A stretch of DNA of 21,741 bases from a virus: IMG/VR virus record IMGVR_UViG_3300010334_005710, positions 1 through 21,741 of that record. The stretch is one strand, 5' to 3'. The position numbers were made by a program, and so were the translations under genes. This document shows, one piece after another, positions 2,328 through 21,741 of this stretch (positions are counted from its first letter, which is position 1; the number at the start of each line of letters is the position of its first letter). A model generated the notes under the pieces. The model saw only the letters and a program-made list of their open reading frames with translations. It was not told the origin of the DNA and made no database searches.

Positions 2328-2750
2328 ATGAAAAAATACCCTTCGAAATACTCGAACGGTAAGTTGGTATCAGCAGCTCAGTATATTACTGAATTAATAT
2401 GTGAGAAGAAAGCTAAGCTTACCGGACAGGACTTGCATTATAAATTTTGGAGTCATAAGACATGGTCAGCATATTACAGAAATCAAATAGGTACTGCTAA
2501 CAAGCTGCTACTTAAGTATTCTGAAGCTGCTATAGTTAAAGCTTTAAATACGTATGAGGCTGCAAAAATTTATTCTCTACGTGCTCCTCACCTGACTCCT
2601 ATAATAGAGCAACAACAACTACTACTCGACTCTCAGAATCAATCGCTTACTCTTGAGCTCGATAGGAAAGAAAACAAGACGTTTAAAACTAATACTAATA
2701 GTACAAAAAATATTTTATCCAAGCTAAAGGATCTAGATAATGGCACTTAA
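2328..2750 (+). CDS. Unknown small protein upstream of the recombinase
   Basis: I place the start at the ATG at 2328, 4 bases after the preceding stop, giving 140 residues. A longer reading from 2253 would overlap the preceding gene by 71 bases, and its extra residues look like out-of-frame translation. The N-terminal 80 residues are basic and rich in aromatic residues (FWSHKTWSAYYRNQIG) and include SLRAPHL further on. The C-terminal part is a helical Gln/Leu/Lys-rich tail. I do not recognise the family. Its position directly before the recombinase, overlapping it by 11 bases, would fit a replication or recombination accessory protein such as a loader, but no motif proves this. Confidence 0.6.
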   Translation: MKKYPSKYSNGKLVSAAQYITELICEKKAKLTGQDLHYKFWSHKTWSAYYRNQIGTANKLLLKYSEAAIVKALNTYEAAKIYSLRAPHLTPIIEQQQLLLDSQNQSLTLELDRKENKTFKTNTNSTKNILSKLKDLDNGT

Positions 2751-3759
2751 AGAAGATGTAAAGAAAAATTTTGGTGACAATGTAATGTTAACAGCAAATG
2801 CTGTTATTGATAAGTCATTGATTACTATCCCAGTTAGTCCAGCATTAGATGTTGTACTAAATGGTGGTATTCCAGAAGGATCATTTGTTATTTTTACTGG
2901 CCAGCCTAAGTGTGGAAAAACAACCACCTCTTTAGATTTCTGTGCAACAGCCCAGAAGAAAGAATATGCTCACGGATCATTCAAAGAAGGGCGAGAGGTT
3001 TATTATCTCAACATAGAAGGTCGTTTAAAGAAAAGAGACCTAGAAGGCATACCCGGATTAAATCTAGAAAAATTCAATATTATTGGATCTCAGGAAGGTA
3101 AAATCCTACATGCAGAAGAATATCTCCAAATTGGAGAAAGAATCATTAATGAAATTCCAGGATCGGTAGTTATTATCGACTCATACTCTGCTCTATGCAC
3201 AGAAGCTGAAATTACTAGCGATATGGATAAGATGCAAAGAGCAGACGGAGCTAAGTTATTAGCCAAATTTTGCAGAAAAGTGTCTAATGTTATTCCTGTT
3301 AATAGAAATGTAGTTATAGGTATTACTCATCAAATGGGTAATCCGGGAATGGGTCATAGTGAGTGGAAAGAAAAGAGTGGTCAGGCTATTGCTTATCAAA
3401 CAGACATTAAAATCAAGGCTAACTATTTTAGTCCTTGGAATTTAAGCACAGATAGTCCCCAGATTGGACAAGAAGTACATTGGCAGGTAATGTGTTCTGC
3501 CCTAGGTGCTCCTGGCGGTAAAATTACAAGCTACATTAGATATGGTCAGGGAATTGATAAGCAGATGGAGTTATTGACACTTGCTGTAGATTTGGGTCTT
3601 GTGTCAAAGGGTGGTGCATGGTATACTATGTCATCTGTCGAGGACAAGCCCAAATTTCAGGGTCTTGAGAAAACAAGACAGTATTTGGTCGATCATCCTG
3701 AAGTTTATGATGATTTATGGACAAAGGTCAAGGATACTATGGGAATCAAATGCAAGTAA
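2740..3759 (+). CDS. RecA/UvsX-like strand-exchange recombinase
   Basis: A 339-residue ATPase expected to form a filament on single-stranded DNA and catalyse homologous pairing during repair and recombination-dependent replication. Visible RecA-fold signatures are Walker A GQPKCGKT at residues 54-61, a YLNIEG segment supplying the catalytic Glu in place of the bacterial FIDAEH, Walker B VVIIDSY with Asp147, and the loop-2 region starting THQMGNPGMGH, which corresponds to the NQIR and GNP segments of RecA. Length is close to RecA (about 350). The start has AAAGGA at 2726-2731 with 8 bases of spacing. It heads a run of replication genes. Whether it is closer to RecA or UvsX needs a phylogeny. 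Confidence 0.9.
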   Translation: MALKEDVKKNFGDNVMLTANAVIDKSLITIPVSPALDVVLNGGIPEGSFVIFTGQPKCGKTTTSLDFCATAQKKEYAHGSFKEGREVYYLNIEGRLKKRDLEGIPGLNLEKFNIIGSQEGKILHAEEYLQIGERIINEIPGSVVIIDSYSALCTEAEITSDMDKMQRADGAKLLAKFCRKVSNVIPVNRNVVIGITHQMGNPGMGHSEWKEKSGQAIAYQTDIKIKANYFSPWNLSTDSPQIGQEVHWQVMCSALGAPGGKITSYIRYGQGIDKQMELLTLAVDLGLVSKGGAWYTMSSVEDKPKFQGLEKTRQYLVDHPEVYDDLWTKVKDTMGIKCK

Positions 3760-4157
3760 AAGATCTAGATGGGAATTCTTGTAATTGGCAATTGATTGGC
3801 AATATTGCGCATGGGTCTATTCAAAATAAATCCAGTCTACATTTACAAGCTAGAGATTTAATCCACGCTTGCTTTCCCACCTTACAGGTTTTGGAGGAAA
3901 TACCAGTTAATATCAGAAGATCGGAAACCCTTTATCTGGATTTTTATTTACCTCTGGTCAAGAAGTGTATAGAAGTTCATGGCGAGCAACATTATAAGTT
4001 TAGTAGATTTTTTCATAATAGTCCGCTAGGATTTATCAGACATAAGAAAAGAGATCAGGAGAAGAAAGATTGGTGTGAATTAAATGGAATTGAATACATA
4101 GAATTACCATTTGATCAAATAGACCAATGGACATCAAGGATAAAAAATGAACACTAA
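3750..4157 (+). CDS. Small PD-(D/E)XK nuclease, Vsr/DUF559-like
   Basis: I choose the ATG at 3750, overlapping the recombinase stop by 10 bases and giving 135 residues. An upstream in-frame ATG at 3717 would add 11 residues lying wholly inside the recombinase gene. The core is LYLDFYLPL followed by CIEVHGEQHY: Asp64, then Glu75-x-His77, the pattern of Vsr-like and DUF559-like nucleases in which Lys of PD-(D/E)XK is replaced. Basic residues follow (RHKKRDQEKKDW) and a closing IEYIELP strand. It probably cuts or nicks DNA. Being coupled to the recombinase, it could act on recombination intermediates, but it could equally be a domesticated mobile nuclease. It is related to the C-terminal domain of the 20817-21617 product. 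Confidence 0.7.
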   Translation: MQVKDLDGNSCNWQLIGNIAHGSIQNKSSLHLQARDLIHACFPTLQVLEEIPVNIRRSETLYLDFYLPLVKKCIEVHGEQHYKFSRFFHNSPLGFIRHKKRDQEKKDWCELNGIEYIELPFDQIDQWTSRIKNEH

Positions 4158-8336: not shown

Positions 8337-9373
8337 TCACATACTTTAGAAGTTCTTCTTACAACACCCACAGTCTCTGCGAGCAGCAATATTTTCTCGA
8401 ATACGTTTTAGGCTATCGAGGTCCTTCTGGTCAAAAAGCTGATAAAGGAACGATTGTGCATAAGGTTCTAGAAATCTTGGCCGTTATCAAAAAAGCTCAA
8501 CAAGATAAACTATCGTCCATAGATGACGACGTTGTTGGCAAGCTAGATGTCAATAAATACGATTTAAATACTATTACAGAAAAAGTATATAAGCACTATT
8601 CTGAAGCAAGCTCCCATCATAAGTGGTCACCAAAGGATTACAAAGATTGTAGTGCTTGGGTATATAAGGCTATTGAGTTTAATGGAGGTATGTTTGACCC
8701 AAGAAATAGACACATCCTATGTCCTGAACAGCATTTTGATATTGAAATCAAAAAACCTTGGTCGGCCTATTCTTATGATACTCCAGAAGGCAAGCTCGAA
8801 GGAAATCTTGGAATAAAAGGAACCATCGATCTCATTACCCTTGTGGACGATAATACAATAGAAATAGTTGATTGGAAAACAGGACGAAGATTAGATTGGG
8901 CGACAGGCAAAGAAAAGACCCAGGAAAAACTAGAAAGTGATCCCCAGCTTAGAATTTATCATTATGCTATTAGTCATTTATATCCTCATATAAATCATAT
9001 TATTTTTTCTATCTACTTTATTAATGATGGTGGTCCATTTTCTATATGTTTTGATAAATCTGATTTACCCAAGACAGAAGAAATGTTACGTCAAAAATTT
9101 GAGATAGTAAAGAACACAAGAAAGCCCAGACTAAACAAAAGTTGGATGTGTACTAAATTATGCCATTTTGGAAAAACCACCTTTGATAATACTCATATAA
9201 CACCACAGATAGAATATAGAGAAAACCATACTTGTAATATGGGTTCTACTATGACCAAATGCGAACAAGTCAAACATGATATCGACTTGCATGGAATGAA
9301 TGCTGTGGTAGAACAGTACAAAAACCAGAACCACTCCTTTGGAAAATACAAGGCGCCAGGAAGCACAGAATGA
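8291..9373 (+). CDS. RecB/Cas4-like PD-(D/E)XK exonuclease
   Basis: A roughly 350-residue nuclease of the PDDEXK_1 family, probably trimming DNA ends for recombination. From a GTG at 8291 the numbering is: YFRSSSYNTHSLCEQQYFLEY near residues 18-38, KGTIVHKVLE (family motif GxxxHxxLE), GTIDLI with Asp180, EIVDWKTG with Glu191, Asp194 and Lys196, then DPQLRIYHYA (QxxxY motif). One N-terminal Cys and late MCTKLC and HTC cysteines could hold a 4Fe-4S cluster as in Cas4 and AddB. The family similarity begins about 14-16 residues after the GTG, so the true start may be an unusual codon near 8330-8336 (see findings). The stop overlaps the polymerase start as ATGA. Confidence 0.85.
   Translation: MYRYSKIFTGDSNIIVTYFRSSSYNTHSLCEQQYFLEYVLGYRGPSGQKADKGTIVHKVLEILAVIKKAQQDKLSSIDDDVVGKLDVNKYDLNTITEKVYKHYSEASSHHKWSPKDYKDCSAWVYKAIEFNGGMFDPRNRHILCPEQHFDIEIKKPWSAYSYDTPEGKLEGNLGIKGTIDLITLVDDNTIEIVDWKTGRRLDWATGKEKTQEKLESDPQLRIYHYAISHLYPHINHIIFSIYFINDGGPFSICFDKSDLPKTEEMLRQKFEIVKNTRKPRLNKSWMCTKLCHFGKTTFDNTHITPQIEYRENHTCNMGSTMTKCEQVKHDIDLHGMNAVVEQYKNQNHSFGKYKAPGSTE
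8317..8321 (+). promoter_or_regulatory. Ribosome binding site AGGAG for the RecB/Cas4-like gene
   Basis: A strong AGGAG lies inside the end of the dNMP kinase gene. It is followed, in the nuclease reading frame, by ATC at 8330, ATA at 8333 and GTC at 8336, but no ATG, GTG or TTG. The ATA overlaps the kinase stop TAG as ATAG. The site fits translation starting here much better than at the GTG at 8291, which lies upstream of it. Confidence 0.5.
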
Positions 9374-11238
9374 AAAATTACGTTCCCCTTCACGCACATT
9401 CTCACTACAGTTTATTGGATGGACTAAGTAAGCCAGCTAAAATGGCTGAAAGGTGTTCAAAAATTAATGTTAAGTCTTGTGCATTAACAGACCATGGAAC
9501 AATAGCTGGTACGGTTCAATTTTTCCAAGCTATGAAAGCAAAAGGAATCAAGCCCATATTGGGTTGTGAACTTTACATTAGCCAGCAAGACTCTCAAATT
9601 AAGACCAAAGAAAATAGCGATCTTAGTCATTTTATTTTATTGGCAAAGAATAAGACGGGGTGGTTCAATTTAATCAAGATCATATCTGAAACAAATAAGC
9701 CAGAAAATTTTTATCACAAACCAAGAATTAGCTTTGATAGACTAAAACCATTTCTAGATGGTAATTTAATAGGATTCTCTGGTCATCTTGGATCAACAAT
9801 AGCAGATGCTATACAAGCAGATCCAGACAATGCTATGAAGATAGGAGCAGAACATGTATCGTATATGAAGGATTTGTTTGGAGATAATTACTTTCTCGAA
9901 AGTCAACTAATGGATAGAGAAAGTACTCCGGAACAAATAGAGCTAACAAATATCATAAGAAGGCTTGGAAGTAATACCAACACAAAGATTATCTGTACCC
10001 CAGATGCTCATTATTGCGAAAAAGAAGATGCTGTTGATCAGCGTATTCTTCTGTGCAATAACTTAAAAACAACATTAACAGAGATTAACAAAAAGATGTT
10101 AAATAACGAAAGCATTCCAATGGGCTGCTTTTTTAAATCGGACAACTTTCATATTTTATCTCCAGAAGAAATAGCACTGCTACACACAGAAGACGAAATA
10201 GAGAATACTAATTATGTAGATAGTTTATGTGAAGATTATGATATTTTGCACAAGCCGATGCTACCTCCATTTTCTTGTCCAAATAATATTAATCCTGACG
10301 AATACCTAAGAGAACTTTGCAGAAAAGGATGGAAAGAGAAAATAGCCAATAATATAGATAAAGAAGACCAACAACAATATATTGATCGTATTAAATATGA
10401 ATTGGATATTTTACAGGGCGCTGACTTGTCTAGCTACTTTTTGATCGTTGGAGATATCGTGAACAAGGTTCGCCTTGAGCACTGGCTCCCTGGCCCCGGT
10501 AGAGGCTCTGCTGCGGGTTGTCTCGTCTCGTATTTAATTGGTATTACCTCCATTGACCCGATCAAGTATAATTTAATTTTCGAAAGATTTTACAATTCTG
10601 GCCGAAATACAAAAGACCGTATTTCCATGCCAGATATTGATGTTGACGTTCCAATTAATAAGAGAGAGTATATTATCGAATATATTAAATCAAAATACGG
10701 CCATGATAAAGTTTCACAAATGATAACTTTTAACACCATGAAGGGAAGAGGGGCCTTAAAAGAAGTATTAAGAGTTTATGGAAACATAACATTTGATGAA
10801 ATGAATAGAATTACTAAATATATCCCAGACGAAGCAAAAATCGCAGACGAACTGCAAGAAATGAAAGAAGATACCGGAGAAGCATCCATTCTACGATGGG
10901 CACTAGAAAACAATGTTGACAAGCTCAAGGAATGGTGCTATATTGATGATAACAACGAATTGTCCGGACCCCTTGCCAAAAGATTTGAGCAAGCTATAAG
11001 ATTAGAGGGCACAAAGTCCAATCAATCCAAACATGCTGCTGGTGTAGTTATTAGTAGTCAAAATTTGGGTTCTGTGTGTCCAATGGTATATGATTCAAAA
11101 AACAAACAGTTGATAGCTGGTATGGAGATGCAGGATTTAGAAGCATTGGGTATTATTAAGTTCGATGTTTTGGGCATAGCCATGTTAGATAAAATTATGA
11201 ATATATCAGAATATCTTAAAAACGGAGAGTCAATATGA
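9370..11238 (+). CDS. dnaE: DNA polymerase III alpha, N-terminal half (PHP, palm, thumb)
   Basis: A 622-residue protein equivalent to the first half of bacterial DnaE. The PHP domain (about 1-260) keeps likely metal ligands: HAHSH at 8-12, TDHG at 40-43, CELY, HFILL and PDAHY. The palm carries PGPGRGSAAG, which binds the incoming nucleotide, and MPDIDVDV with catalytic Asp422 and Asp424. The third catalytic Asp is Asp599 in KFDVLGI. Translation then stops at 622, before the fingers. The start has AGGAA at 9358-9362 and overlaps the nuclease stop as ATGA. The rest of the enzyme is encoded at 12111-13739. No intein motif (N-terminal Cys block or C-terminal His-Asn) is present, so the parts presumably assemble non-covalently. 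Confidence 0.93.
   Translation: MKNYVPLHAHSHYSLLDGLSKPAKMAERCSKINVKSCALTDHGTIAGTVQFFQAMKAKGIKPILGCELYISQQDSQIKTKENSDLSHFILLAKNKTGWFNLIKIISETNKPENFYHKPRISFDRLKPFLDGNLIGFSGHLGSTIADAIQADPDNAMKIGAEHVSYMKDLFGDNYFLESQLMDRESTPEQIELTNIIRRLGSNTNTKIICTPDAHYCEKEDAVDQRILLCNNLKTTLTEINKKMLNNESIPMGCFFKSDNFHILSPEEIALLHTEDEIENTNYVDSLCEDYDILHKPMLPPFSCPNNINPDEYLRELCRKGWKEKIANNIDKEDQQQYIDRIKYELDILQGADLSSYFLIVGDIVNKVRLEHWLPGPGRGSAAGCLVSYLIGITSIDPIKYNLIFERFYNSGRNTKDRISMPDIDVDVPINKREYIIEYIKSKYGHDKVSQMITFNTMKGRGALKEVLRVYGNITFDEMNRITKYIPDEAKIADELQEMKEDTGEASILRWALENNVDKLKEWCYIDDNNELSGPLAKRFEQAIRLEGTKSNQSKHAAGVVISSQNLGSVCPMVYDSKNKQLIAGMEMQDLEALGIIKFDVLGIAMLDKIMNISEYLKNGESI
10459..10482 (+). other. Hairpin with TTCG loop in a GC-rich patch of dnaE
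   Basis: GTG (10459-10461) pairs with CAC (10480-10482) and CAAGG (10464-10468) with CCTTG (10473-10477) around a TTCG loop, with an AA/AG internal loop between the stems. The hairpin lies at the start of a stretch, to about 10560, that is notably richer in G and C than the surrounding gene. It may be chance within a conserved coding region; an RNA role is not shown. Confidence 0.35.
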
Positions 11239-11417
11239 CAAACATAGTAAAAAAAATGCAAGACGTTCAGATAGGAGAGAGATTTACTGTAGCTGGAACA
11301 GAATATATTAAGACCAACGAAATCAGAGTTACTTGTTGTAAATCAATTAACTGTGAAGTGGTTGGTAATGCTGATGCTAAAACCTATTTTTCACCGGAAA
11401 TGGATGTAAATGGCTAA
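11235..11417 (+). CDS. Small unknown protein between the polymerase halves
   Basis: A 60-residue protein with ATGA overlap to the first polymerase gene and GGAGAG about 6 bases upstream of the start, so it is very likely translated. It seems to be a small beta protein: IGERFTVAGTEYIKT, then RVTCCKSINCEVV with three cysteines close together, then TYFSPEMDV at the end. Its stop overlaps the exonuclease gene by 8 bases. No function is recognised. Being translated in strict coupling between polymerase and proofreader suggests a part in the polymerase complex, possibly a theta-like or assembly factor, but this is inference from place alone. Confidence 0.65.
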   Translation: MTNIVKKMQDVQIGERFTVAGTEYIKTNEIRVTCCKSINCEVVGNADAKTYFSPEMDVNG

Positions 11418-12105
11418 TTTTCAAAAATTGTGTGTGTTTGATCTGGAAACTGACGGGGTCAATCCAGATAAGTGTAGCCCAGTACAAATAGCTGCTATTA
11501 TGGTTGATCCTATGAAGTTGGAGATTGTTAAGAACTCCGAGTTCAATATTAACCTAAAACCAGAGGTTCTACAAGACAATGCAGACTATGACTATAACGA
11601 TAGTGATGTATTAGATTTTCATGCTAAGGTAAGAAATTCTACCAAAGCAGAAATTTTAAAGAGTTGGTCAGGATATCAAAAACAAGATAATGGTTGGAAA
11701 GCTTTTGTTTCATATTTAGACATGTATCATACTAGAGCTAGTAAAAAGTCTTGTTTTAGTGCTCCCATAGCTGCTGGCTACAATATTAATAGATTTGACC
11801 TTAGAATTATAGACAGATTAAGTGTCAAATATAATAATGTAAATAAAGAGGGTCGATCCTCATTATTTTATCCCAGAGACGTACTAGATCTCATGAATGT
11901 GATGTTCTACTGGTTTGAGGGAAGTAATGAGCTTAAGAACTATACTTTAGATCATGTTAGAGAGTATTTTGGATTAAGTACCGAAGGATCACACGATGCT
12001 CTAAAAGATGTTCAGGATACTGCAGAATTAGTAATTAGGTTTCTAAAGTTACACAGGAAACTGTCGGATAAAATTACATTTAAAGGATCTTTTGCGAAAA
12101 CTTAA
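11410..12105 (+). CDS. dnaQ: DnaQ-like 3'-5' proofreading exonuclease
   Basis: A 231-residue DEDDh exonuclease, expected to remove misincorporated nucleotides. Exo I is FDLETDG with Asp11 and Glu13; Exo II is YNINRFD with Asp130; Exo III is GSHDALKDVQDTA with His195 and Asp200. All four carboxylates and the catalytic His are present. Compared with bacterial epsilon (about 243 residues) there is no extended C-terminal alpha-binding tail, and about 60 residues with acidic and helical content are inserted between Exo I and Exo II. It is encoded between the two polymerase genes and 5 bases before the second, which fits its being the proofreading partner of that enzyme. RNase T-like activity on RNA is the main alternative. 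Confidence 0.92.
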   Translation: MANFQKLCVFDLETDGVNPDKCSPVQIAAIMVDPMKLEIVKNSEFNINLKPEVLQDNADYDYNDSDVLDFHAKVRNSTKAEILKSWSGYQKQDNGWKAFVSYLDMYHTRASKKSCFSAPIAAGYNINRFDLRIIDRLSVKYNNVNKEGRSSLFYPRDVLDLMNVMFYWFEGSNELKNYTLDHVREYFGLSTEGSHDALKDVQDTAELVIRFLKLHRKLSDKITFKGSFAKT

Positions 12106-12110
12106 AACTT

Positions 12111-13739
12111 ATGTCTGAATATTTAGCTTTTGATTGTGGTTGTAGATTTCCTGTTGAGAGAATTGCTAATGGTAAAACCTCCATTGACTTTAATCCAACA
12201 ATTGAGTCTATGAATTTGGAGTGTAGAAAAACATGGGATCTTATTTCTACTGGTAATACAAAAGGATGTTTTCAGTTAGAGTCTAGGCTCGGACAAGCCA
12301 TGGCTAAAAAACTCAAACCAGAAAATATTGAACAGCTATCAGCCCTAATTAGTATTTTAAGACCAGGATGTTTGGAAGCTATTAGAGATGGTAAGAGCGT
12401 TTCAAACCATTATATAGATAAAAAGAATGGACAAGAAAGTATTGACTATTTTCATCCCAGTTTAGAAAAAGCCCTACAAACGACTTATGGGGAAATGATT
12501 TATCAAGAACAGTCTATGGAGATAGCTCAAACCATAGCTGGTTTTGATCTCAAAGAAGCAGACATGCTAAGAAAAGCCATTGGCAAGAAAAAACCAGAAG
12601 AAATGGCCAAGGTTAAGTCTAAATTTTTAGATGGTGTCAAACAGACAAAGATTGTTTCAAGCGATCAAGCAGAAGAAATATTCGGATGGATAGAAAAAAG
12701 TCAGAGATACTCCTTCAATAAGTCCCATGCTGTATCATATGCCATAAACGGCTATTTATCAGCATATGCAAAAGCTCATTTTCCTAAGATATTTTTTGCT
12801 GCATATTTAAAATTTGCTAAGGATAAAATAGATCCTCAACAAGAAATCAAAGAGTTAATTCGTAATGCTAGCGAAATGGATATTAACGTTTGTATTCCTG
12901 ATCTAAGAAACCTTAATGAGTTTTTTGTTATAAAAGAGCAGAATATTTATTTTGGCCTTACCGATATTAAAGGGGTGGGTTCTTCTGTCTTTAATAAGCT
13001 CATAGAGATTACCCAGGATATGGATTTAACCAAACTTAACTGGGTTCAACTATGTGGTAAAATTTTAATGAATATTAACTCTACAGCAGCTAAAGCCCTC
13101 ATTGGAGGAGGAGCTTTGGACTATACTAAAAAAAGTAGAACCGAAATGCTTTTTGAGTATGATATTATGTCAGGATTAACAAAAAAAGAGCTAGAACAGT
13201 TTATGTCTTATTCTGATAGTGAGAATACAACCAACCTAAAGCAGTGCCTATCTCACCTGTGTGATAATGGCACAAAAATAAATAAAAACCGTAAACAAAA
13301 TTTGGCTGGTTTATTAGAATTATTAAATAATCCACCATATTCTTTGATGGATAAAATAGAGTGGTTATCTGATACAGAAAGTCAGCTTTTGGGAGCCTCG
13401 ATAACCTGCTCAAAGCTAGATACTTATGATATTAGCATGACCAATATGGATTGTAAAACATATAAAAATACCTATATAGATAAAAATATTATTCTTGCTG
13501 GAGAGATAACCAATATTAATGTTGTCAAAACTAAAAAAGGTAAAAATCCAGGACAAGAGATGGCATTTCTAACTATAGAAGATGGTGGTGGCATGTTAGA
13601 TTCTGTTGTTCTATTTCCAGAAAAGTGGGCAGAATACAAACACCATCTATTTGAAAGCAATATTCTCATTTTTGTTGGCAGTAAAACTAAAAACAAAGAT
13701 GCGTTTGTGGTGGAAAAGTGTTTTATACCGAAGTCTTGA
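12111..13739 (+). CDS. dnaE: DNA polymerase III alpha, C-terminal half (fingers, HhH, OB)
   Basis: A 542-residue protein equivalent to the second half of DnaE; with the first half it totals 1164 residues, close to the 1160 of E. coli. The fingers include GCFQLES at 52-58, LRPG, YQEQSM, AIGKKKPEEMAK and FNKSHA at 202-207. A helix-hairpin-helix follows (DIKGVGSS, about 285-292) and an OB fold (from about 459, IILAGEITN, to SVVLFPEKW). The N-terminus carries about 40 residues with CGC at 9-11 and Cys38 that have no counterpart in E. coli DnaE. No Shine-Dalgarno sequence precedes the ATG, so it may depend on reinitiation after the exonuclease gene. A clear clamp-binding motif was not found. It holds no catalytic Asp and must join the first half to work. 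Confidence 0.92.
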   Translation: MSEYLAFDCGCRFPVERIANGKTSIDFNPTIESMNLECRKTWDLISTGNTKGCFQLESRLGQAMAKKLKPENIEQLSALISILRPGCLEAIRDGKSVSNHYIDKKNGQESIDYFHPSLEKALQTTYGEMIYQEQSMEIAQTIAGFDLKEADMLRKAIGKKKPEEMAKVKSKFLDGVKQTKIVSSDQAEEIFGWIEKSQRYSFNKSHAVSYAINGYLSAYAKAHFPKIFFAAYLKFAKDKIDPQQEIKELIRNASEMDINVCIPDLRNLNEFFVIKEQNIYFGLTDIKGVGSSVFNKLIEITQDMDLTKLNWVQLCGKILMNINSTAAKALIGGGALDYTKKSRTEMLFEYDIMSGLTKKELEQFMSYSDSENTTNLKQCLSHLCDNGTKINKNRKQNLAGLLELLNNPPYSLMDKIEWLSDTESQLLGASITCSKLDTYDISMTNMDCKTYKNTYIDKNIILAGEITNINVVKTKKGKNPGQEMAFLTIEDGGGMLDSVVLFPEKWAEYKHHLFESNILIFVGSKTKNKDAFVVEKCFIPKS

Positions 13740-13805: not shown

Positions 13806-14183
13806 ATGAATATTACTATTCTAAGAGGAAATTTGGCTCGTGATCCTGAGCTCAGAGTTGTTAATACTAACGGGAAACAAACTTCTGTAGTTAATTTTAC
13901 AGTTGCTGTATCTAGAGAGTATACCAAGTCGAATGGGGAAAAAGATAAAGTGGCTTCTTTTATTAACTGTGAAGCCTGGGATACTGGGGCTGATATTATA
14001 AGTTCTTCTTTTAAGAAGGGCGACCTAGTCTTGGTAGAAGGTTCTCTTAGGAATGATTCTTGGGAAAAGGACGGAGTTAAGCATAGTAGCTTAAAGGTTA
14101 GGGTCAATAATTTTTCAAAGATCACAAAGCTAAGCAAGCCCTCAAAGGCTCAATCAGAAGAAGTTGAAACTGTAAACTTCTGA
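13806..14183 (+). CDS. ssb: Single-stranded DNA-binding protein
   Basis: A 125-residue OB-fold protein of the bacterial SSB family that coats single-stranded DNA at the fork. The N-terminus MNITILRGNLARDPELR is the family opening; NFTVAVSREYTK, FINCEAWDT, FKKGDLVLVEGSLRNDSW follow in the usual order. The C-terminal tail (after about residue 108) is short and ends EEVETVNF, an acidic stretch with a terminal Phe but not the usual DDIPF, so any docking to partner proteins could differ from that of the host SSB. It has its own promoter, strong ribosome binding site and terminator, suggesting production independent of the polymerase operon. Confidence 0.93.
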   Translation: MNITILRGNLARDPELRVVNTNGKQTSVVNFTVAVSREYTKSNGEKDKVASFINCEAWDTGADIISSSFKKGDLVLVEGSLRNDSWEKDGVKHSSLKVRVNNFSKITKLSKPSKAQSEEVETVNF

Positions 14184-14208: not shown

Positions 14209-14228
14209 GGGGGCGAAAGCCCCCTTTT
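14209..14228 (+). terminator. Intrinsic terminator after ssb
   Basis: GGGGGC (14209-14214), a GAAA tetraloop and GCCCCC (14219-14224) form a six-base-pair GC stem, followed directly by TTTT and a T-rich tract. It ends the ssb unit and separates replication genes from the sugar-transfer cassette. Immediately downstream bases 14229-14272 contain only a poor promoter match (TTGTCC, TATCTT), so how the cassette is transcribed is unclear. Confidence 0.92.
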
Positions 14229-15946: not shown

Positions 15947-16956
15947 ATATTCTTTATGTTGGAAGCTACAGAATGAATGACGATGTTGGAGAAATGTCTA
16001 GACTATATTTACAAGACATAGCATCGAAACATAATGTTACAGCTAGGCCAGTTTTTATTACTAAAAATACTATAACAGATATAGATCCAAAAATTATAGA
16101 GTTAGAAAATAATTTATTTTCAGAGTATGATTATTGTATACAAGCTCTTCCAATGGAAATGTTAACATTTTGTGGTGGTATAAAAAAACACATAGCTCTA
16201 ATATCTCACAACTATTTAAATGCTATTAGCAATTATTCAGTACTCAATCAGTTAAAGAGGATGAATATTGTGGCCGTTAATAATGCCGAAGATGAGTCTA
16301 TGCTGGTAAGGTCGGAGGTTTCTTGTCAAATCAAAAGAATAGACTGTCCAATAAATCTAGATATGGCTAATTCAATAGACAAAAAATTTAATTTTGGAAT
16401 CCATGAGAACCATCACAAGTTTTATTTATTTGCAAATTACAAAGAAGATTTAGAAGTTATACACAAAACAATATTAGCTTTTTATATGGCCTTTAGGTGT
16501 AGAGAAGGACATAGTCTCATAATGATCCTAGAAGGTTCTGATCAGGATAGAGAACATCTTCACAAAGCAAGATTAGACCTTAAAAAACAACTACATATAG
16601 TTGAATATAATCATTCAATTAATGAACTATATATATTTGACCAACTATCAGATAGCGATAAGCTTATGATACACAGCTCTTGCGACACTCTTCTAAACCT
16701 ATCGCAGACAGCGTCGATTCTGCAAAAACAATATGCATTATTCTTTGGTAATAGTATAATAGATAAAAATAATGTTGATACTATAGAGCTCCCAAATAAA
16801 TCTCATTACGGAGATACTATATACTATCCTGGAAATTTTATTGAATCTTTAGTAACTAATAGTATCTCGGCAACTATGATTAGTTGCAGCGCAAAACATA
16901 AAAAAATGCCAACAACCAACATCTACAACCATAAGCTATCATCTATCATATCATGA
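15943..16956 (+). CDS. Diverged GT-B-like glycosyltransferase
   Basis: A 337-residue protein starting with ATGA overlap and AAAGG about 6 bases upstream. The start (MNILYVGSYRMNDDVGEMSR) and middle (IALISHNYL, then FYLFANYKEDLEVIHKTILAFY) resemble the two halves of GT-B glycosyltransferases: an N-terminal Rossmann beta strand with a turn and the linker to the donor-binding domain. The late segment IHSSCDTLLNLS is where an E-x7-E motif is expected, but no matching Glu pair is present. It could be a catalytically altered or acceptor-binding member. Two related genes (16953 and 19653) flank the cassette's interior. Assignment rests on pattern and context only. Confidence 0.6.
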   Translation: MNILYVGSYRMNDDVGEMSRLYLQDIASKHNVTARPVFITKNTITDIDPKIIELENNLFSEYDYCIQALPMEMLTFCGGIKKHIALISHNYLNAISNYSVLNQLKRMNIVAVNNAEDESMLVRSEVSCQIKRIDCPINLDMANSIDKKFNFGIHENHHKFYLFANYKEDLEVIHKTILAFYMAFRCREGHSLIMILEGSDQDREHLHKARLDLKKQLHIVEYNHSINELYIFDQLSDSDKLMIHSSCDTLLNLSQTASILQKQYALFFGNSIIDKNNVDTIELPNKSHYGDTIYYPGNFIESLVTNSISATMISCSAKHKKMPTTNIYNHKLSSIIS

Positions 16957-17825
16957 ACACAAGCATAAATAATGTTATTGAAACAGTTATGAGAAATTCA
17001 AAACAACAAAAATTAAATATTTTATACAATGACACTTCATCCTCTCCCTTACCAGGGCTTTTATCCAACTCAGATAATTTAAATTTTATTAAGGTCAACA
17101 AGATTGAACCAAAAACGCTTGATATAGGATTTAGTGCTTATTTTTGTGACGACTATCTAGAAATAGATAAAGGACATTCTAATATTATTAATGCTATGCA
17201 TGTTAAAAATATCATTCCTTTTGCTGATCTTCCTTTTAGAACATTGAAAAAAGAAGATTTCTTAATACTTAATCAAAACCTGTTATCTTCTAAGAAAATT
17301 TGTTTTAATGACTTGGTCTATAAGATATGGAGTCAATATTTTCAGATAGATCAAATCAAACCTGGAGTACCAGATTTCCAGCTCAATGATTCAAAAGAGA
17401 GGAAGTCCATTATTGTTGTGTCTACTTCTAATAAAAAACAAGCTAAAACCATGCACGAACAAATAAGCAAAGTTGTTGATAATGTTGGACTAATATCAAA
17501 TTTTAATAAGATCTCATCAGAAGAAACTATTACTATATTAGGTCAATACAAAGTAGCTATTGTTCTGGACAATTCTATATCTTGTTTTATGGCTATGAGC
17601 GCTGGTTGTGGTGTGGTTTGTCCTATTCCTTTTTACGAGGAAGTTCTAACATATAAAAACAGCAAAGAACTCAATGAATCAATATCATTAGCGGATCAGC
17701 TTTTCGATAGTGGTAAAACTTTACTATTAGCTAAAAAAATGAAAGAAGACAATAGCTTTAAAAACTTTGACAGAGAGCTATATAACTGTATTATCAATAT
17801 AACAAAGGAGCCATTTTTATTATGA
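16953..17825 (+). CDS. Glycosyltransferase-like protein, diverged
   Basis: A 290-residue protein with ATGA overlap to the preceding gene. Residues about 132-230 look like a GT-B donor-binding half: RKSIIVVSTSNKKQ, a strand and turn, ILGQYKVAIVLDN, then MAMSAGCGVVCP, which corresponds to the EAMACGCPVV stretch of glycosyltransferases but has lost the first acidic residue. The N-terminal part has FSAYFCDDYLE and PFADLPFRTL with no obvious motif. It may be an inactive paralogue that binds a sugar nucleotide or a partner, or a diverged enzyme. A strong AAAGGAG (about 17803-17809) in its 3' end belongs to the next gene. Confidence 0.55.
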   Translation: MNTSINNVIETVMRNSKQQKLNILYNDTSSSPLPGLLSNSDNLNFIKVNKIEPKTLDIGFSAYFCDDYLEIDKGHSNIINAMHVKNIIPFADLPFRTLKKEDFLILNQNLLSSKKICFNDLVYKIWSQYFQIDQIKPGVPDFQLNDSKERKSIIVVSTSNKKQAKTMHEQISKVVDNVGLISNFNKISSEETITILGQYKVAIVLDNSISCFMAMSAGCGVVCPIPFYEEVLTYKNSKELNESISLADQLFDSGKTLLLAKKMKEDNSFKNFDRELYNCIINITKEPFLL

Positions 17826-18241
17826 GTAGAAATATTAATCTATATAATTCTCAGGCGGAACAAAATTTAGATGGTTTTGATAATATCCCGCTATCTAAAT
17901 TAGATGATATTGTTAATTACTCTGTAGATATTTTATTTTATAGAGAAATGAACTCCCTAGAACCTGATCAAAAAAATCAGATTTTAAACGTAATGTTACA
18001 AAAAATACGTACTGGTGGCAGTCTAGTTTTAAAATTCGTCGATTCTAAAATACTATCAAAAATGTATTGGGATAATCAGATAACATCCCAAGCTTTCATG
18101 GACAAAATATCAAATAATAAAAATATCACTACTCCGGAAGAAATAAATGAAATTGTTAACAAAGATGAATTCACATTATCTAGAATAGAACATAAAGAAG
18201 AACAAATTCTAGTGTCAATTAATAGAAAAGAGATTCTATAA
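17822..18241 (+). CDS. Methyltransferase-like fragment without SAM-binding loop
   Basis: A 139-residue protein, ATGA-coupled to the preceding gene and preceded by AAAGGAG with about 12 bases of spacing. The stretch from residue 18 (FDNIPLSKLDDIVNYSVD) through the LEPDQKNQILNVM helix to KIRTGGSLVLKFVD (63-74) matches the region of a class I SAM methyltransferase around motifs II to IV, with the GG turn of the lysine/proline-GG loop. The preceding part, which should hold the GxGxG SAM loop, is missing, since there are only about 17 residues before it. It therefore appears to be a family of shortened methyltransferase folds retained in the sugar cassette. Methyl transfer is unlikely on its own. 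Confidence 0.55.
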   Translation: MSRNINLYNSQAEQNLDGFDNIPLSKLDDIVNYSVDILFYREMNSLEPDQKNQILNVMLQKIRTGGSLVLKFVDSKILSKMYWDNQITSQAFMDKISNNKNITTPEEINEIVNKDEFTLSRIEHKEEQILVSINRKEIL

Positions 18242-18242
18242 A

Positions 18243-18992
18243 ATGAAAAATACTCTTTGTGAAAATTGTTTGTTTTCTGACCATGCATCATCACAATCTC
18301 CTTGTGAACATGAAGTAATTAAGCATATAAAGGATACTAAAACACTAAAGATTGATAATGATTTCTATGTTATAGAAAACTACATGTGTAAAATGGGATT
18401 TTCTAAAAAGGCATTCGACAGTAATTCAGAAAAATACTCTTTAGAAGAGATTAAACAAGAAATATTAAAAAACGCATGTATAAAATACTACTTAGTTATG
18501 GATATCACAGAAGCAAATAGTGAACAGCTGTCCAATACCTGCTCAAAAATTAACGAATTAAAGATTCCACCCAAATACATATCTTTTTTAATCTTTAGTG
18601 AAAACAGTAAAGATAAGATAGAACTACTTAAAGAGTCAAAGATTACCAATGTAGAATGGAAAGCTCATTCTTTTATTGCTGATGTAGACAAAAATAATGG
18701 TTTACATTTAGCTCTAGATACAAACTTAAAGAAAAACAATTCTCAATTATTGTTGTTCTATAATATAGATGACATAGATGATTTAGACCAAGATGTCAAT
18801 GAGATTAATACAATAGTCAACATAGAACAACCAGCATTTCATATACTTAAAAAAAACAACAAAGAAAATACAATGGACGGTCTCTTCTTATCTTTTGATT
18901 CTTATGAATATGCTAAAAGCCAAAACAAAGATATCATAAGGGCTATAAGCGATTTAGAAAATACCATAATATTAAACTATGGAACAAAATAA
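18243..18992 (+). CDS. Cys-rich protein of unknown function in sugar cassette
   Basis: A 249-residue protein. Cysteines at 6, 9, 21 and 49 in the first 50 residues (LCENCLFSDH, then SPC, then YMC) could hold zinc or an iron-sulfur cluster. The remainder (YYLVMDITEANSE, NSQLLLFYNIDDIDDLDQ) has alternating strand and helix patterns loosely like a GT-A glycosyltransferase but lacks a clear DxD donor site other than acidic runs. It starts 1 base after the preceding stop with no good Shine-Dalgarno sequence and overlaps the next gene by 14 bases. Treat it as unknown with a probable N-terminal metal site. Confidence 0.6.
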   Translation: MKNTLCENCLFSDHASSQSPCEHEVIKHIKDTKTLKIDNDFYVIENYMCKMGFSKKAFDSNSEKYSLEEIKQEILKNACIKYYLVMDITEANSEQLSNTCSKINELKIPPKYISFLIFSENSKDKIELLKESKITNVEWKAHSFIADVDKNNGLHLALDTNLKKNNSQLLLFYNIDDIDDLDQDVNEINTIVNIEQPAFHILKKNNKENTMDGLFLSFDSYEYAKSQNKDIIRAISDLENTIILNYGTK

Positions 18993-19656
18993 CATCAATG
19001 CTATTATCATAGCCACAGAAATAACAAAAGGCATGAAGTCTGTTGGACCCAAAGCATTGCTGCAGATTAAAAAAACAACATGTGTTATTGAGTACCAAAT
19101 TAATGAATTAAAAAAGAACTATAAAAACATTAATATATATGTTGCTATTGGTTTTGAATCAGATAAGATGATAAAAACCCTATCTAAGCATAACATTAAT
19201 ATTATTTTTAATCCCGATTTCAGATACACAAATCAAGTAAAATCTATAATAGATTGTGTTAATTTATACGATATTAATAATTTACTAGTGATTAATAATG
19301 GAATTTTATTCAAAAAGTCCTTTGGTTGTATCAAGTCTAACGAACCATCTTCTGTGTTCACTTTGAGCAAAAGCAAAATGGATTTCAACATAGGCTGTCA
19401 AAAATCTGACGAAGTAATGTATTTGTTTTATGATCTACCAGAAAAATGGACAGAGTGTGTTTTACTTAATAATACAGCAATTAATGACCTTAAGTCTATA
19501 TCAAAAAATAAAAATATGTCTCAGCTATATGTATTCGAAATGGTTAATATGCTAATAGAGAATGGACATAGTTTTAAAAGAGTTTCTCTCGACTCTCGTA
19601 ATATTATGAAAATCTCTGGAATAAAAGACTTAAAAAGGGCCAAGGTATTTATATGA
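18979..19656 (+). CDS. Sugar nucleotidyltransferase-like protein, degenerate active site
   Basis: A 225-residue protein resembling GlmU/LicC-type nucleotidyltransferases, which join a sugar phosphate to an NTP. The start INAIIIATEITKGMKSVGPKALLQI lines up with AIILAAGxGxRM...PK.L, with PKALL at 24-28 preserved. The GxGxR loop is replaced by TEITKGMK. The next strand (IYVAIGFESDKM) and NPDF appear as in the family. The metal-binding Asp expected after LLV is Asn-Asn (INNG, 105-108). It may be a catalytically altered member or a sugar-nucleotide binder. It overlaps the preceding gene by 14 bases and the next by the ATGA overlap. Confidence 0.6.
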   Translation: MEQNNINAIIIATEITKGMKSVGPKALLQIKKTTCVIEYQINELKKNYKNINIYVAIGFESDKMIKTLSKHNINIIFNPDFRYTNQVKSIIDCVNLYDINNLLVINNGILFKKSFGCIKSNEPSSVFTLSKSKMDFNIGCQKSDEVMYLFYDLPEKWTECVLLNNTAINDLKSISKNKNMSQLYVFEMVNMLIENGHSFKRVSLDSRNIMKISGIKDLKRAKVFI

Positions 19657-20363
19657 ACTTTTTTGTACAACCAGTAGACGATAAGTTTATTAACAACACA
19701 ATTATCTCCCTAAGAGAAATGGGTCACGATGTTCTATCTGTGCCAGTTGAGCAAAATCTATACAGAATTTACCATAAATTTCAGTTTGAGTCTGCTCTAT
19801 TTTTAGCATCAAAATTTGATAACGAAATAGCTCAATTTATTTCTGAGTTTTGCTCAAAAAATATTAAGTTTTATATATACCATGATGATAATATCAACAA
19901 AGATCTGCTCCAACACTATGGATCTGTATGTAAAAATCTAACTACTACTAAACATGAAAAATGCATACACATACCAGAATTGATCAACCAGTATCTGTAT
20001 AAAAACAATAAACAGCAAAAAGAGCCAATTGTCTCTTGCTTTTTAGATTCTGTGGGAGAAATCCCCAAAGAACTAGAAGAATATCTTTATCCTAATTCAA
20101 ATTTGAAACTTAGGTTATTTAATAATCCTACCATTAAACATTATCAAAATCTTGGAGTCTTAGACGAATACGATAAACCAAATATTTTAAATCAGTCAGA
20201 ATATTTTCTTAGTTTTGATGGTTATTATTCTAATGAGGCAATTGCGTGTGGATGTAAAGTTCTTAGTCTAAAAGATTTGAAGAAGATAGACAAAGTCAAA
20301 AACAAAAAGAGTAAGCAAAAAGTACAAACATATCAAGAATTTATAGAGTCTAATTTATTATGA
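19653..20363 (+). CDS. Glycosyltransferase-like protein, C-terminal GT-B pattern
   Basis: A 236-residue protein started by an ATGA overlap with AAGG upstream. N-terminal NFFVQPVDDKFINNTI and DVLSVPVEQN have alternating strands and helices. Near the end, NILNQSEYFLSFDGYYSNEAIACGCKVLSL resembles the final donor-domain motif of GT-B proteins (x-x-E-A-x-x-x-G-x-x-V). The C-terminus is strongly basic (KVKNKKSKQK). The protein is short for a complete GT-B enzyme (typically about 350), so it may be shortened or need the neighbouring protein at 20360-20845, which looks like a further fragment. The assignment is a pattern judgement. Confidence 0.5.
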   Translation: MNFFVQPVDDKFINNTIISLREMGHDVLSVPVEQNLYRIYHKFQFESALFLASKFDNEIAQFISEFCSKNIKFYIYHDDNINKDLLQHYGSVCKNLTTTKHEKCIHIPELINQYLYKNNKQQKEPIVSCFLDSVGEIPKELEEYLYPNSNLKLRLFNNPTIKHYQNLGVLDEYDKPNILNQSEYFLSFDGYYSNEAIACGCKVLSLKDLKKIDKVKNKKSKQKVQTYQEFIESNLL

Positions 20364-20845
20364 AAACTAAAACACTACAAAAAAATACCGCAAACAAAGA
20401 TCTTGGTTTTTTATTTTTAAGATTGGATTCTAGTAATAGTCCTATCTATGACAATCTTATTGAGATAGCAAATAATAGACCATATGATCAAACATGCATA
20501 TTTAGCAGTAGTGCTGGTGGTTGGTCTGGAGATCAGTTACCCATATTTCACATTAATGAAATGAAATATTTTTTTGGATCAATATTGGTATTTGATATAG
20601 CCTCTCTTATACTTACTAGAGATTTTCCAAATCTACACAAAAGAATATACTATGCCCTTGATTTACCCTGGACAGACAATCCAACAAGCAAATATACTGA
20701 TTGGCATGGAATATTTTGTCAAAATAATTTAGAGATTGTGTGTCAAAATAAGAATATTTATGATATATACGATATATGTTGGAAGAAACCCCTTTCAGTA
20801 ACATCAGAAATAAATTATGAATCAATATCCGAAATCATTAAATAG
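20360..20845 (+). CDS. Unknown protein closing the sugar cassette
   Basis: A 161-residue protein with ATGA overlap at its start. The body reads LGFLFLRLDSSNSPIYDNL, a CIFSSS strand, FHINEMKYFFGSILVFD and YYALDLPWTDN, and closes with IVCQNKNIYDIYDICWKKP. The strand-helix alternation and LPW segment look like the N-terminal domain of a GT-B fold, but I know no family with certainty. Its C-terminal 29 bases overlap the following endonuclease gene in another frame. It is probably the last gene of the sugar cassette. Confidence 0.55.
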   Translation: MKTKTLQKNTANKDLGFLFLRLDSSNSPIYDNLIEIANNRPYDQTCIFSSSAGGWSGDQLPIFHINEMKYFFGSILVFDIASLILTRDFPNLHKRIYYALDLPWTDNPTSKYTDWHGIFCQNNLEIVCQNKNIYDIYDICWKKPLSVTSEINYESISEIIK

Positions 20846-21617
20846 TTTAGATAAAGAAGAAAAATACTCTCTTCTAAAGAATATGTATATTACAGAAAAG
20901 CAAAGCTTTGCTGATATAGCAGAAAAACTGGATACGTATCCTAATAAAATCAGGAGAGAAATATTAGCATTAAAGATTCCTATTAGAGATAAATCTGATG
21001 CTCAAAAAAATGCCCTAAAATCTGGCAAGCATAAACACCCAACCAAGGGTCAAAATAGGTCTGAGGAAATTAAGAACAAAATAGGTATGGGGGTTATGAA
21101 GTCGTGGGACTCTCTTGATGATGCTGCTTTGAATAAGAGAAAATTAAAAGCAAAAGAGGCTTGGGAAAACCTAGACGAAGACACTAAACAAAATATGATT
21201 AAGCTAGCAAATGATGCTGTTAGAGCAACATCAAAAACAGGATCCAAACTAGAAAAATTCATATTCAATAAGTTGCTAGAGGATGGATACAAAGTTGATT
21301 TTCATAAAGAGCAAAACTTACTAACTACCAAGTTGCAGATTGACTTGTTTCTGCCTACCATGAATGTAGCTATCGAGATTGACGGACCATCTCACTTTCT
21401 TCCAGTATGGGGAGACGATGCTCTGCAAAAGAATATTAAATACGATCAGAAGAAAGAAGGACTAATTTTAGGAAAAGGGTTAAAGTTGATCAGAATCAAA
21501 CAAACCAAAGACTTTTCCAAATCTAGATCAAATAATACATATGCTACCCTCAAGAATTTGCTAGAAAATATTTCAAATCAAACTAACTCAGAACGTAACT
21601 TTACAATAGAGGACTAA
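20817..21617 (+). CDS. HTH/NUMOD3-like/Vsr-like endonuclease
   Basis: A 266-residue modular endonuclease. Residues about 28-58 form a helix-turn-helix (SFADIAEKLDTYPNKIRREI). Then GKHKHPTKGQNRSEEIKNKI (70-89) resembles the NUMOD3 DNA-binding motif of homing endonucleases, and two related units with W-x-x-L-D follow (KSWDSLDD and EAWENLDE). The C-terminal part from about 143 is a Vsr-like PD-(D/E)XK nuclease: LQIDLFLP with Asp176, then AIEIDGPSHF with Glu187, Asp189 and His193, and a closing LIRIK strand. The layout is like homing enzymes such as the EDxHD group, though it does not interrupt any gene here. It overlaps the preceding gene by 29 bases. Confidence 0.75.
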   Translation: MNQYPKSLNSLDKEEKYSLLKNMYITEKQSFADIAEKLDTYPNKIRREILALKIPIRDKSDAQKNALKSGKHKHPTKGQNRSEEIKNKIGMGVMKSWDSLDDAALNKRKLKAKEAWENLDEDTKQNMIKLANDAVRATSKTGSKLEKFIFNKLLEDGYKVDFHKEQNLLTTKLQIDLFLPTMNVAIEIDGPSHFLPVWGDDALQKNIKYDQKKEGLILGKGLKLIRIKQTKDFSKSRSNNTYATLKNLLENISNQTNSERNFTIED

Positions 21618-21618
21618 A

Positions 21619-21741
21619 ATGGTCAAGAAGAAAGAGGAAGTAATCGTGGAGAATGCTCAGGAAATTGTAGAAAAGAAAACTGTCACACCTAATGATCTAG
21701 AGTGGACTGATCATGTTCTTGCTTTATTAAGCGATGACGAA
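21619..21741 (+). CDS. Unknown protein, 3' end cut by the window edge
   Basis: The frame opens with ATG 1 base after the endonuclease stop and stays open to the last base, giving 41 residues. The first 20 residues are a Lys/Glu-rich helix (VKKKEEVIVENAQEIVEKK), and TPNDLEWTDHVLALLSDDE follows. GAGG at 21609-21612 lies 6 bases upstream and serves as a ribosome binding site. The family cannot be named from this much. Confidence 0.6.
   Translation, partial: MVKKKEEVIVENAQEIVEKKTVTPNDLEWTDHVLALLSDDE

What the first reader, a model, noticed from the sequence alone, without database searches (positions are those of the whole stretch)
9370..13739. C-family DNA polymerase encoded as two separate proteins with the proofreader gene between them
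The DnaE sequence stops at residue 622, directly after the palm, and resumes at 12111 in a new gene. All three catalytic Asp (422, 424, 599) are in the first protein; fingers, helix-hairpin-helix and OB fold are in the second. Intein blocks are absent and the break differs from the cyanobacterial split-intein site, which is in the FNKSH region. The intervening genes encode a 60-residue protein and a DEDDh exonuclease, so the order polymerase-N, small protein, proofreader, polymerase-C may guide assembly of a four-part enzyme. The two halves sum to normal DnaE length, so the split is clean rather than a deletion.
Basis: partly seen in the sequence, partly recalled or inferred. Interest (0 to 1): 0.75.

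Follow-up and report, generated by a model that had tools for sequence, protein, structure and literature searches.

The report
Two-piece phage DNA polymerase III
A large group of uncultured aquatic phages encodes its copying enzyme (a bacterial-type DNA polymerase III) as two separate proteins, with a tiny protein and a proofreading nuclease encoded between the halves; this is real, old and inherited, a clear variant of a known theme (split phage polymerases) rather than something wholly new.

Summary
Confirmed. The window, an uncultured phage fragment, encodes DnaE as an N-half (9370-11238: PHP, palm, thumb, all three catalytic Asp) and a C-half (12111-13739: fingers, HhH, OB). A 60-aa protein (11235-11417) and a DEDDh exonuclease (11410-12105) lie between them, in one tightly packed run with SSB. 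It is no artefact. All 220 relative loci (129 distinct junction sequences) have separate ORFs, none fused, nearly all in the order N-S-X-C with an almost constant gap. The split forms are one clade (support 100). In 25 large contigs (74-244 kb) this is the only DNA polymerase found: no PolA, no PolB, one Pol III palm. Catalytic, PHP-ligand and exonuclease residues are invariant. Splicing is unlikely: there is no room for an intein or intron. The break maps to the palm-fingers linker (E. coli DnaE 566-585), and the C-half gained a 30-residue extension with an invariant CGC motif found in no other DnaE examined. 'Clean split of normal length' is partly coincidence, because the C-terminal domain is missing and the N-half is longer. 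Most likely a two-chain replicase that assembles without splicing, with X as proofreader. S's role is open. Precedents exist: split PolB gene 43, split minimal Pol III, phage phiT1.

The parts
9370..11238 (+). N-half of DnaE (622 aa): PHP, palm, thumb; catalytic D422, D424, D599; all nine PHP metal-ligand positions present (H8, H10, D17, H42, E67, H87, H139, D212, H214)
   Evidence: Pfam PF02811, PF07733; aligns to E. coli DnaE 6-565 and to Taq DnaE; these residues invariant in 49 representatives
11235..11417 (+). S, 60-aa beta-barrel-like protein with invariant Cys-Cys (C34 C35); ATGA overlap with the N stop
   Evidence: present between N and X in the relatives; AlphaFold2 model pLDDT 86.9, all beta; only non-significant Foldseek matches to EF-P/eIF5A-type domains
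11410..12105 (+). X, DEDDh (DnaQ-like) 3'-5' exonuclease, D11 E13 D130 H195 D200
   Evidence: PF00929, phrog_192; active-site residues invariant in 88 representatives; only RNase_T exonuclease in each of 12 large contigs
12111..13739 (+). C-half of DnaE (542 aa): fingers, helix-hairpin-helix, OB fold; no C-terminal tau-binding domain
   Evidence: PF17657, PF14579, PF01336; profile positions 31-349 = E. coli DnaE 586-901; AlphaFold2 model matches DnaE structures 4iqj, 7pu7, 5fku
12111..12200 (+). 30-residue N-terminal extension of the C-half with invariant C9-G10-C11-x-F13; with C38 a possible zinc knuckle or docking element
   Evidence: invariant in 91 representatives; absent from the fused DnaEs examined (junctions); short beta strands in the model; no other significant match in held sequences
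13806..14183 (+). SSB, last gene of the run
   Evidence: PF00436; follows C in nearly all relatives
14209..14224 (+). strong terminator-like hairpin closing the N-S-X-C-SSB run
   Evidence: 6-bp all-GC stem followed by T run

Best explanation
This is the phage's own and probably only replicative DNA polymerase: a DnaE-type Pol III alpha whose gene was broken once, in the ancestor of a large phage clade, in the linker between palm and fingers. The two polypeptides are not joined. They bind each other to rebuild one active site, N giving PHP, palm and catalytic Asp, and C giving fingers, HhH and OB. X binds the complex as the proofreading exonuclease. The short CGC extension on the C-half, and perhaps S, most likely stabilise the new interface or link X to the polymerase. 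Tight gene packing makes the four proteins together. Shown: the split, its conservation, intact active sites, absence of another polymerase or DnaQ-like exonuclease in the large contigs searched, one clade, no room for splicing. Inferred: non-covalent assembly, X as bound proofreader. Guess: the roles of S and the CGC extension.
For: Separate ORFs in 220/220 loci (129 distinct junctions), N-stop to C-start 833-1000 nt in 212 of 220. Split forms form one clade with support 100 on a long stem. One PF07733 polymerase and no PolA/PolB in 25 contigs of 74-244 kb. No locus showed one half without the other where enough sequence was held. Catalytic and PHP residues invariant in N, fingers motifs invariant in C. 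Break corresponds to E. coli DnaE 566-585. Genes overlap or nearly touch: N/S ATGA, S/X 8-nt overlap, X-C 5 nt in the window, X-C overlapping or under 10 nt in 208 of 221 loci. Phage precedent: the split gene 43 products of Aeromonas phage 25 co-purify and have polymerase activity, and split Aeh1 NrdA is active (PMC2988022).
Against: No direct evidence that N and C bind, or that S belongs. The C-half model is weak around residues 84-128 and 199-203. No phage beta clamp or delta-prime relative was found in 12 large contigs, so how processivity is achieved is unknown. None of the contigs is certified complete, so a second polymerase could lie outside them.
Confidence: 0.82

Rival explanations
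1. The halves are joined after all, by an intein pair, by an intron containing S and X, or by ribosomal bypass, giving one normal chain.
For: Inteins and introns do invade this polymerase: an in-frame HNH intein lies in the C-half of L151/152 and a LAGLIDADG ORF interrupts the N gene of L011 and L027. Cyanobacterial DnaE is joined by a split intein.
Against: N has only 23 residues after D599 and C only 30 before its first aligned residue, too short for intein halves. S and X fill the gap with coding sequence, leaving about 5 non-coding nt in the window. No Rfam intron in the window. N's in-frame stop and C's own start are kept in all relatives. A 30-residue non-DnaE extension would be left at the joint.
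Confidence: 0.04
2. Only the N-half (all catalytic Asp) does chemistry; the C-half is an independent DNA-binding or regulatory protein.
For: All three catalytic Asp and the PHP domain are in N.
Against: Fingers bind template and nucleotide in known DnaE structures. The C-half keeps the canonical fingers, HhH and OB order and its invariant motifs (FNKSH, RPG, YQEQ), and it is always present with N.
Confidence: 0.05
3. The split arose when a homing endonuclease or similar mobile element broke dnaE; the element was later lost, and S and X moved into the gap. S is a bystander and the order has no assembly role.
For: Free-standing endonuclease-like ORFs sit between N and S in L141, L143 and L178, and an intron-like LAGLIDADG insertion and an intein sit elsewhere in the same polymerase genes. 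Homing endonucleases fractured nrdA in Aeh1 and gene 60 in T4 (PMC2988022). In L082 and L204-206 the S domain lies inside an ~820-840-aa RCC1-like ORF in the same place, so S need not be a free subunit.
Against: The S-X block is kept in the relatives over 129 distinct junctions, which argues for selection on S and X; the endonuclease insertions look like recent additions in three loci. This concerns origin and is compatible with the best explanation for function.
Confidence: 0.35
4. The break is a sequencing or assembly artefact or a degraded gene.
For: Metagenomic contig, no cultured member.
Against: 220 relative loci in many independent assemblies show the same break, and both halves keep invariant active-site residues.
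Confidence: 0.005

Closest known systems
Rossellomorea phage phiT1 DnaE (PV767480; gp20, gp19, gp18)
   Same: DnaE in two ORFs broken at the same palm-fingers linker, with a small ORF between
   Different: Only ~33% (N) and ~30% (C) identical; not sister to this clade in the tree, though on long branches; its 49-aa ORF does not match the S profile; no exonuclease between; no CGC extension
Split 'minimal' Pol III alpha of group 2.2 jumbo phages (Iyer et al. 2021, PMC7824862)
   Same: Pol III catalytic core in two proteins thought to reconstitute one enzyme
   Different: There a minimal core in distantly located genes beside a family B polymerase; here a PHP-bearing, nearly full DnaE in one gene run and no PolB found
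Split gene 43 (family B polymerase) of Aeromonas phages 25 and 44RR; split nrdA of Aeh1 (PMC2988022)
   Same: Phage enzyme genes broken into two polypeptides that reassemble without splicing
   Different: Different polymerase family and single phages, not a clade-wide fixed state; no proofreader gene between the halves
Cyanobacterial split-intein DnaE
   Same: dnaE in two genes
   Different: Joined by trans-splicing inteins at the FNKSH region; here no intein and a break ~170 residues earlier
DnaE1/DnaE3 and PolC of bacteria
   Same: Same catalytic domains; PolC also joins DEDDh exonuclease and PHP polymerase
   Different: Single chains; PolC has the exonuclease inserted in PHP

Membership tests
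DnaE (C-family Pol III alpha) | PHP + palm with three catalytic Asp | tested here: met
DnaE (C-family Pol III alpha) | fingers, HhH and OB domains in that order | tested here: met
   in a second polypeptide; OB match is below the Pfam cut-off
DnaE (C-family Pol III alpha) | single polypeptide | tested here: not met
   0 of 220 loci fused
DnaE (C-family Pol III alpha) | C-terminal tau-binding domain | tested here: not met
   C-half ends after OB; matches 583-1051 of 1146 of NF004226
DnaE (C-family Pol III alpha) | polymerase activity | not testable with these tools
   needs protein
Split-intein DnaE | intein N and C parts at the break; break in FNKSH region | tested here: not met
   no residues available for an intein, break at E. 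coli 566-585
Minimal split Pol III alpha of jumbo phages (Iyer 2021) | minimal core without other Pol III domains, distant genes, with a PolB in the genome | tested here: not met
   PHP, HhH and OB present; genes ~0.87 kb apart; PolB 0 of 25 contigs
Homing-endonuclease-fractured gene | endonuclease gene between the halves | tested here: inconclusive
   not in the window; endonuclease-like ORF between N and S only in L141, L143, L178
PolC | DEDDh exonuclease inserted in PHP | tested here: not met
   exonuclease is a separate gene; PolC models match only weakly
DnaQ/epsilon-type proofreader (X) | DEDDh residues intact | tested here: met
   D11 E13 D130 H195 D200 invariant in 88 representatives
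DnaQ/epsilon-type proofreader (X) | binds the polymerase | not testable with these tools
   needs pull-down or complex prediction

The most novel reading that the evidence does not exclude
A four-chain replicase: after the break the clade evolved a dedicated interface (the CGC extension of the C-half, with invariant cysteines, and the CC-bearing S protein) that clamps the halves and the exonuclease together, so that S is a new obligatory polymerase subunit.
Probability: 0.27. Interest if true: 0.72.

Novelty: new variant of a known kind. Interest (0 to 1): 0.5.

Why it matters
If the halves assemble as inferred, a whole phage lineage replicates 150-240 kb genomes with a naturally two-chain Pol III. 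That gives a natural test of which DnaE interfaces are enough to rebuild the active site, a possible new polymerase subunit (S), and a case where a probable genome accident became fixed clade-wide. The split also means that ordinary annotation will miss or mislabel the replicase of these common aquatic phages.

Tried and rejected
Artefact or pseudogene: rejected (220 split relatives, invariant active sites). Intein or intron joining: rejected on space, on coding density of the gap and on absence of an Rfam intron. Second polymerase in the phage: PolA and PolB not found in 25 large contigs, with controls ringing. Phage clamp or loader: PF02768 and PF13177 not found in 12 contigs with controls ringing; PF09116 (T4 clamp) and PF07068 (T4 capsid) gave nothing but their controls were also silent, so uninformative. 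Fused member of the clade: none in scans of IMG/VR and GTDB genomes with single proteins and with alignments, but only the best 80 of up to ~400 matches per scan were kept. X in cultured phages: no match. Literature searches for split DnaE in phages found only the precedents cited. Fold of S: no significant PDB match.

Full report
The observation. The window is a 21,741-base IMG/VR viral record. N carries PHP and palm; C carries fingers, HhH and, weakly by Pfam, OB. By comparison with solved structures N matches E. coli DnaE 6-565 and the C-half profile matches 586-901 from its residue 31 on. The missing piece is thus only the short linker between palm and fingers, E. coli 566-585. An AlphaFold2 model of the C-half (mean pLDDT 81.7, weak at residues 84-128 and 199-203) matches DnaE structures first.

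Is it real and general? Scans of IMG/VR with each half and with alignments returned up to about 400 matching stretches per scan, of which the best 80 were kept each time. In all 220 loci in which both sides of the break could be read, the halves are in different ORFs and never fused. They give 129 distinct junction sequences, which guards against counting one contig or one phage twice. The distance from N stop to C start is 833-1000 nt in 212 of 220; of the eight exceptions, those examined hold an extra or a much longer ORF in the gap. No locus had one half alone where enough sequence was held. The upstream and downstream neighbours are kept too. Assembly error and pseudogene are excluded.

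Is it functional? In 49 N-halves D422, D424 and D599 never vary, and neither do nine positions that fit the PHP metal ligands (H8, H10, D17, H42, E67, H87, H139, D212, H214). Assigning them as ligands rests on the alignment to Taq DnaE and on general knowledge of PHP motifs. In 88 X proteins the DEDDh residues never vary. In 91 C-halves the fingers motifs never vary. In 25 large contigs of the clade (74-244 kb) there is one Pol III palm and no PolA or PolB (in one of them the palm gene is itself interrupted), and X is the only RNase_T-type exonuclease in each of 12 of them. The contigs are not certified complete, so 'only replicase' is strong but not proven. No bacterial-type clamp or delta-prime relative was found; whether these phages borrow the host clamp is open.

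What is new at the joint. The C-half starts with about 30 residues that no other DnaE examined has at this place. They contain C-G-C-x-F, invariant in all representatives, and a further invariant Cys lies at 38. The model shows short beta strands there. A profile of this piece found nothing else significant in the held sequences. S has an invariant Cys-Cys and a confident all-beta model, but no significant structural match; the best are EF-P or eIF5A-type domains at E about 0.3. In one sub-clade (L082, L204-206) the S domain sits inside an ~820-840-aa RCC1-like ORF at the same place. This weakens the idea that S must be a small free subunit, while keeping the S domain between N and X.

Not joined. 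N ends 23 residues after D599 and C has 30 residues before homology begins, which is too little for intein halves. S and X occupy the whole gap, with overlapping starts and stops (N/S ATGA; S/X 8 nt; X-C 5 nt), so there is no space for an intron core, and Rfam finds none in the window. The packing fits translational coupling, which is inference. A Shine-Dalgarno-like sequence is often lacking before C (82 of 221 have one by a loose test).

Origin. A tree of 41 DnaE sequences puts all 20 split representatives in one clade with support 100 and a long stem; placement of other long rows is unsure. The simplest reading is that the break happened once, before the clade diversified to about 55% identity. 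The same polymerase genes have been hit by mobile elements in relatives: an in-frame HNH intein after RPG in C (L151, L152), a LAGLIDADG ORF interrupting N just before MPDIDVD (L011, L027), and ~230-aa endonuclease-like ORFs between N and S (L141, L143, L178). Breakage by a mobile element that was later lost is plausible but not shown.

Compared with what is known. Split phage enzymes that reassemble without splicing are established: gene 43 of phage 25 and nrdA of Aeh1 (PMC2988022). A split minimal Pol III core beside PolB is described in jumbo phages (PMC7824862). Among cultured phages, phiT1 has DnaE broken at the same linker, while Larrie and Jayan are broken near the catalytic PDxDxD motif; most others examined are single ORFs. 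What differs here is a PHP-bearing DnaE, fixed as two chains across a whole uncultured clade as its apparent sole replicase, with a proofreader and S always between the halves and a clade-specific extension at the joint. I found no description of it in the searchable literature, which holds open-access papers only. Verdict: new variant of a known kind.

Noticed in passing
L151 8729-11128 (also L152): In-frame intein with HNH-like region in the C-half, inserted at RPG|C (CIAGDTKILV ... NVIVHN|C).
   Followed up: partly
L011 2149-5133; L027 2132-5119 (also L029-L033 by BLAST pattern): N gene interrupted just before the catalytic MPDIDVD motif by ~1 kb with an out-of-frame LAGLIDADG-like ORF; looks like an intron, no Rfam match.
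   Followed up: partly
L141 2130-2813, L143, L178 4439-5134: Extra ~230-aa ORF resembling an HNH homing endonuclease between N and S; no Pfam match at threshold.
   Followed up: partly
L082, L204, L205, L206, between N and X: S domain is embedded in an ~820-840-aa protein with RCC1 repeats placed between N and the exonuclease.
   Followed up: partly
L199 3989-7271 (Rossellomorea phage phiT1): DnaE of a cultured phage is split at the same palm-fingers linker with an unrelated 49-aa ORF between.
   Followed up: yes
L325 872-4452 (Tenacibaculum phage Larrie); L202 3983-7390 (Bacillus phage Jayan): Other cultured phages with DnaE in two ORFs, broken near the PDxDxD motif; the tail of Larrie's first ORF might be intein-like (not tested).
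   Followed up: partly
window 3717-4154: Homing endonuclease-like ORF (phrog_9084, phrog_559) overlapping the end of the UvsX/RecA-like gene 2740-3759.
   Followed up: no
window ~16000-21741: GC drops from ~0.34 to ~0.28 downstream of a glycosyltransferase gene; the ORFs searched there have no Pfam match.
   Followed up: no
L237, L238, L239: Three contigs of this phage clade were binned into bacterial MAGs (Alphaproteobacteria, Flavobacteriales, Chitinophagia); weak host hints only.
   Followed up: no
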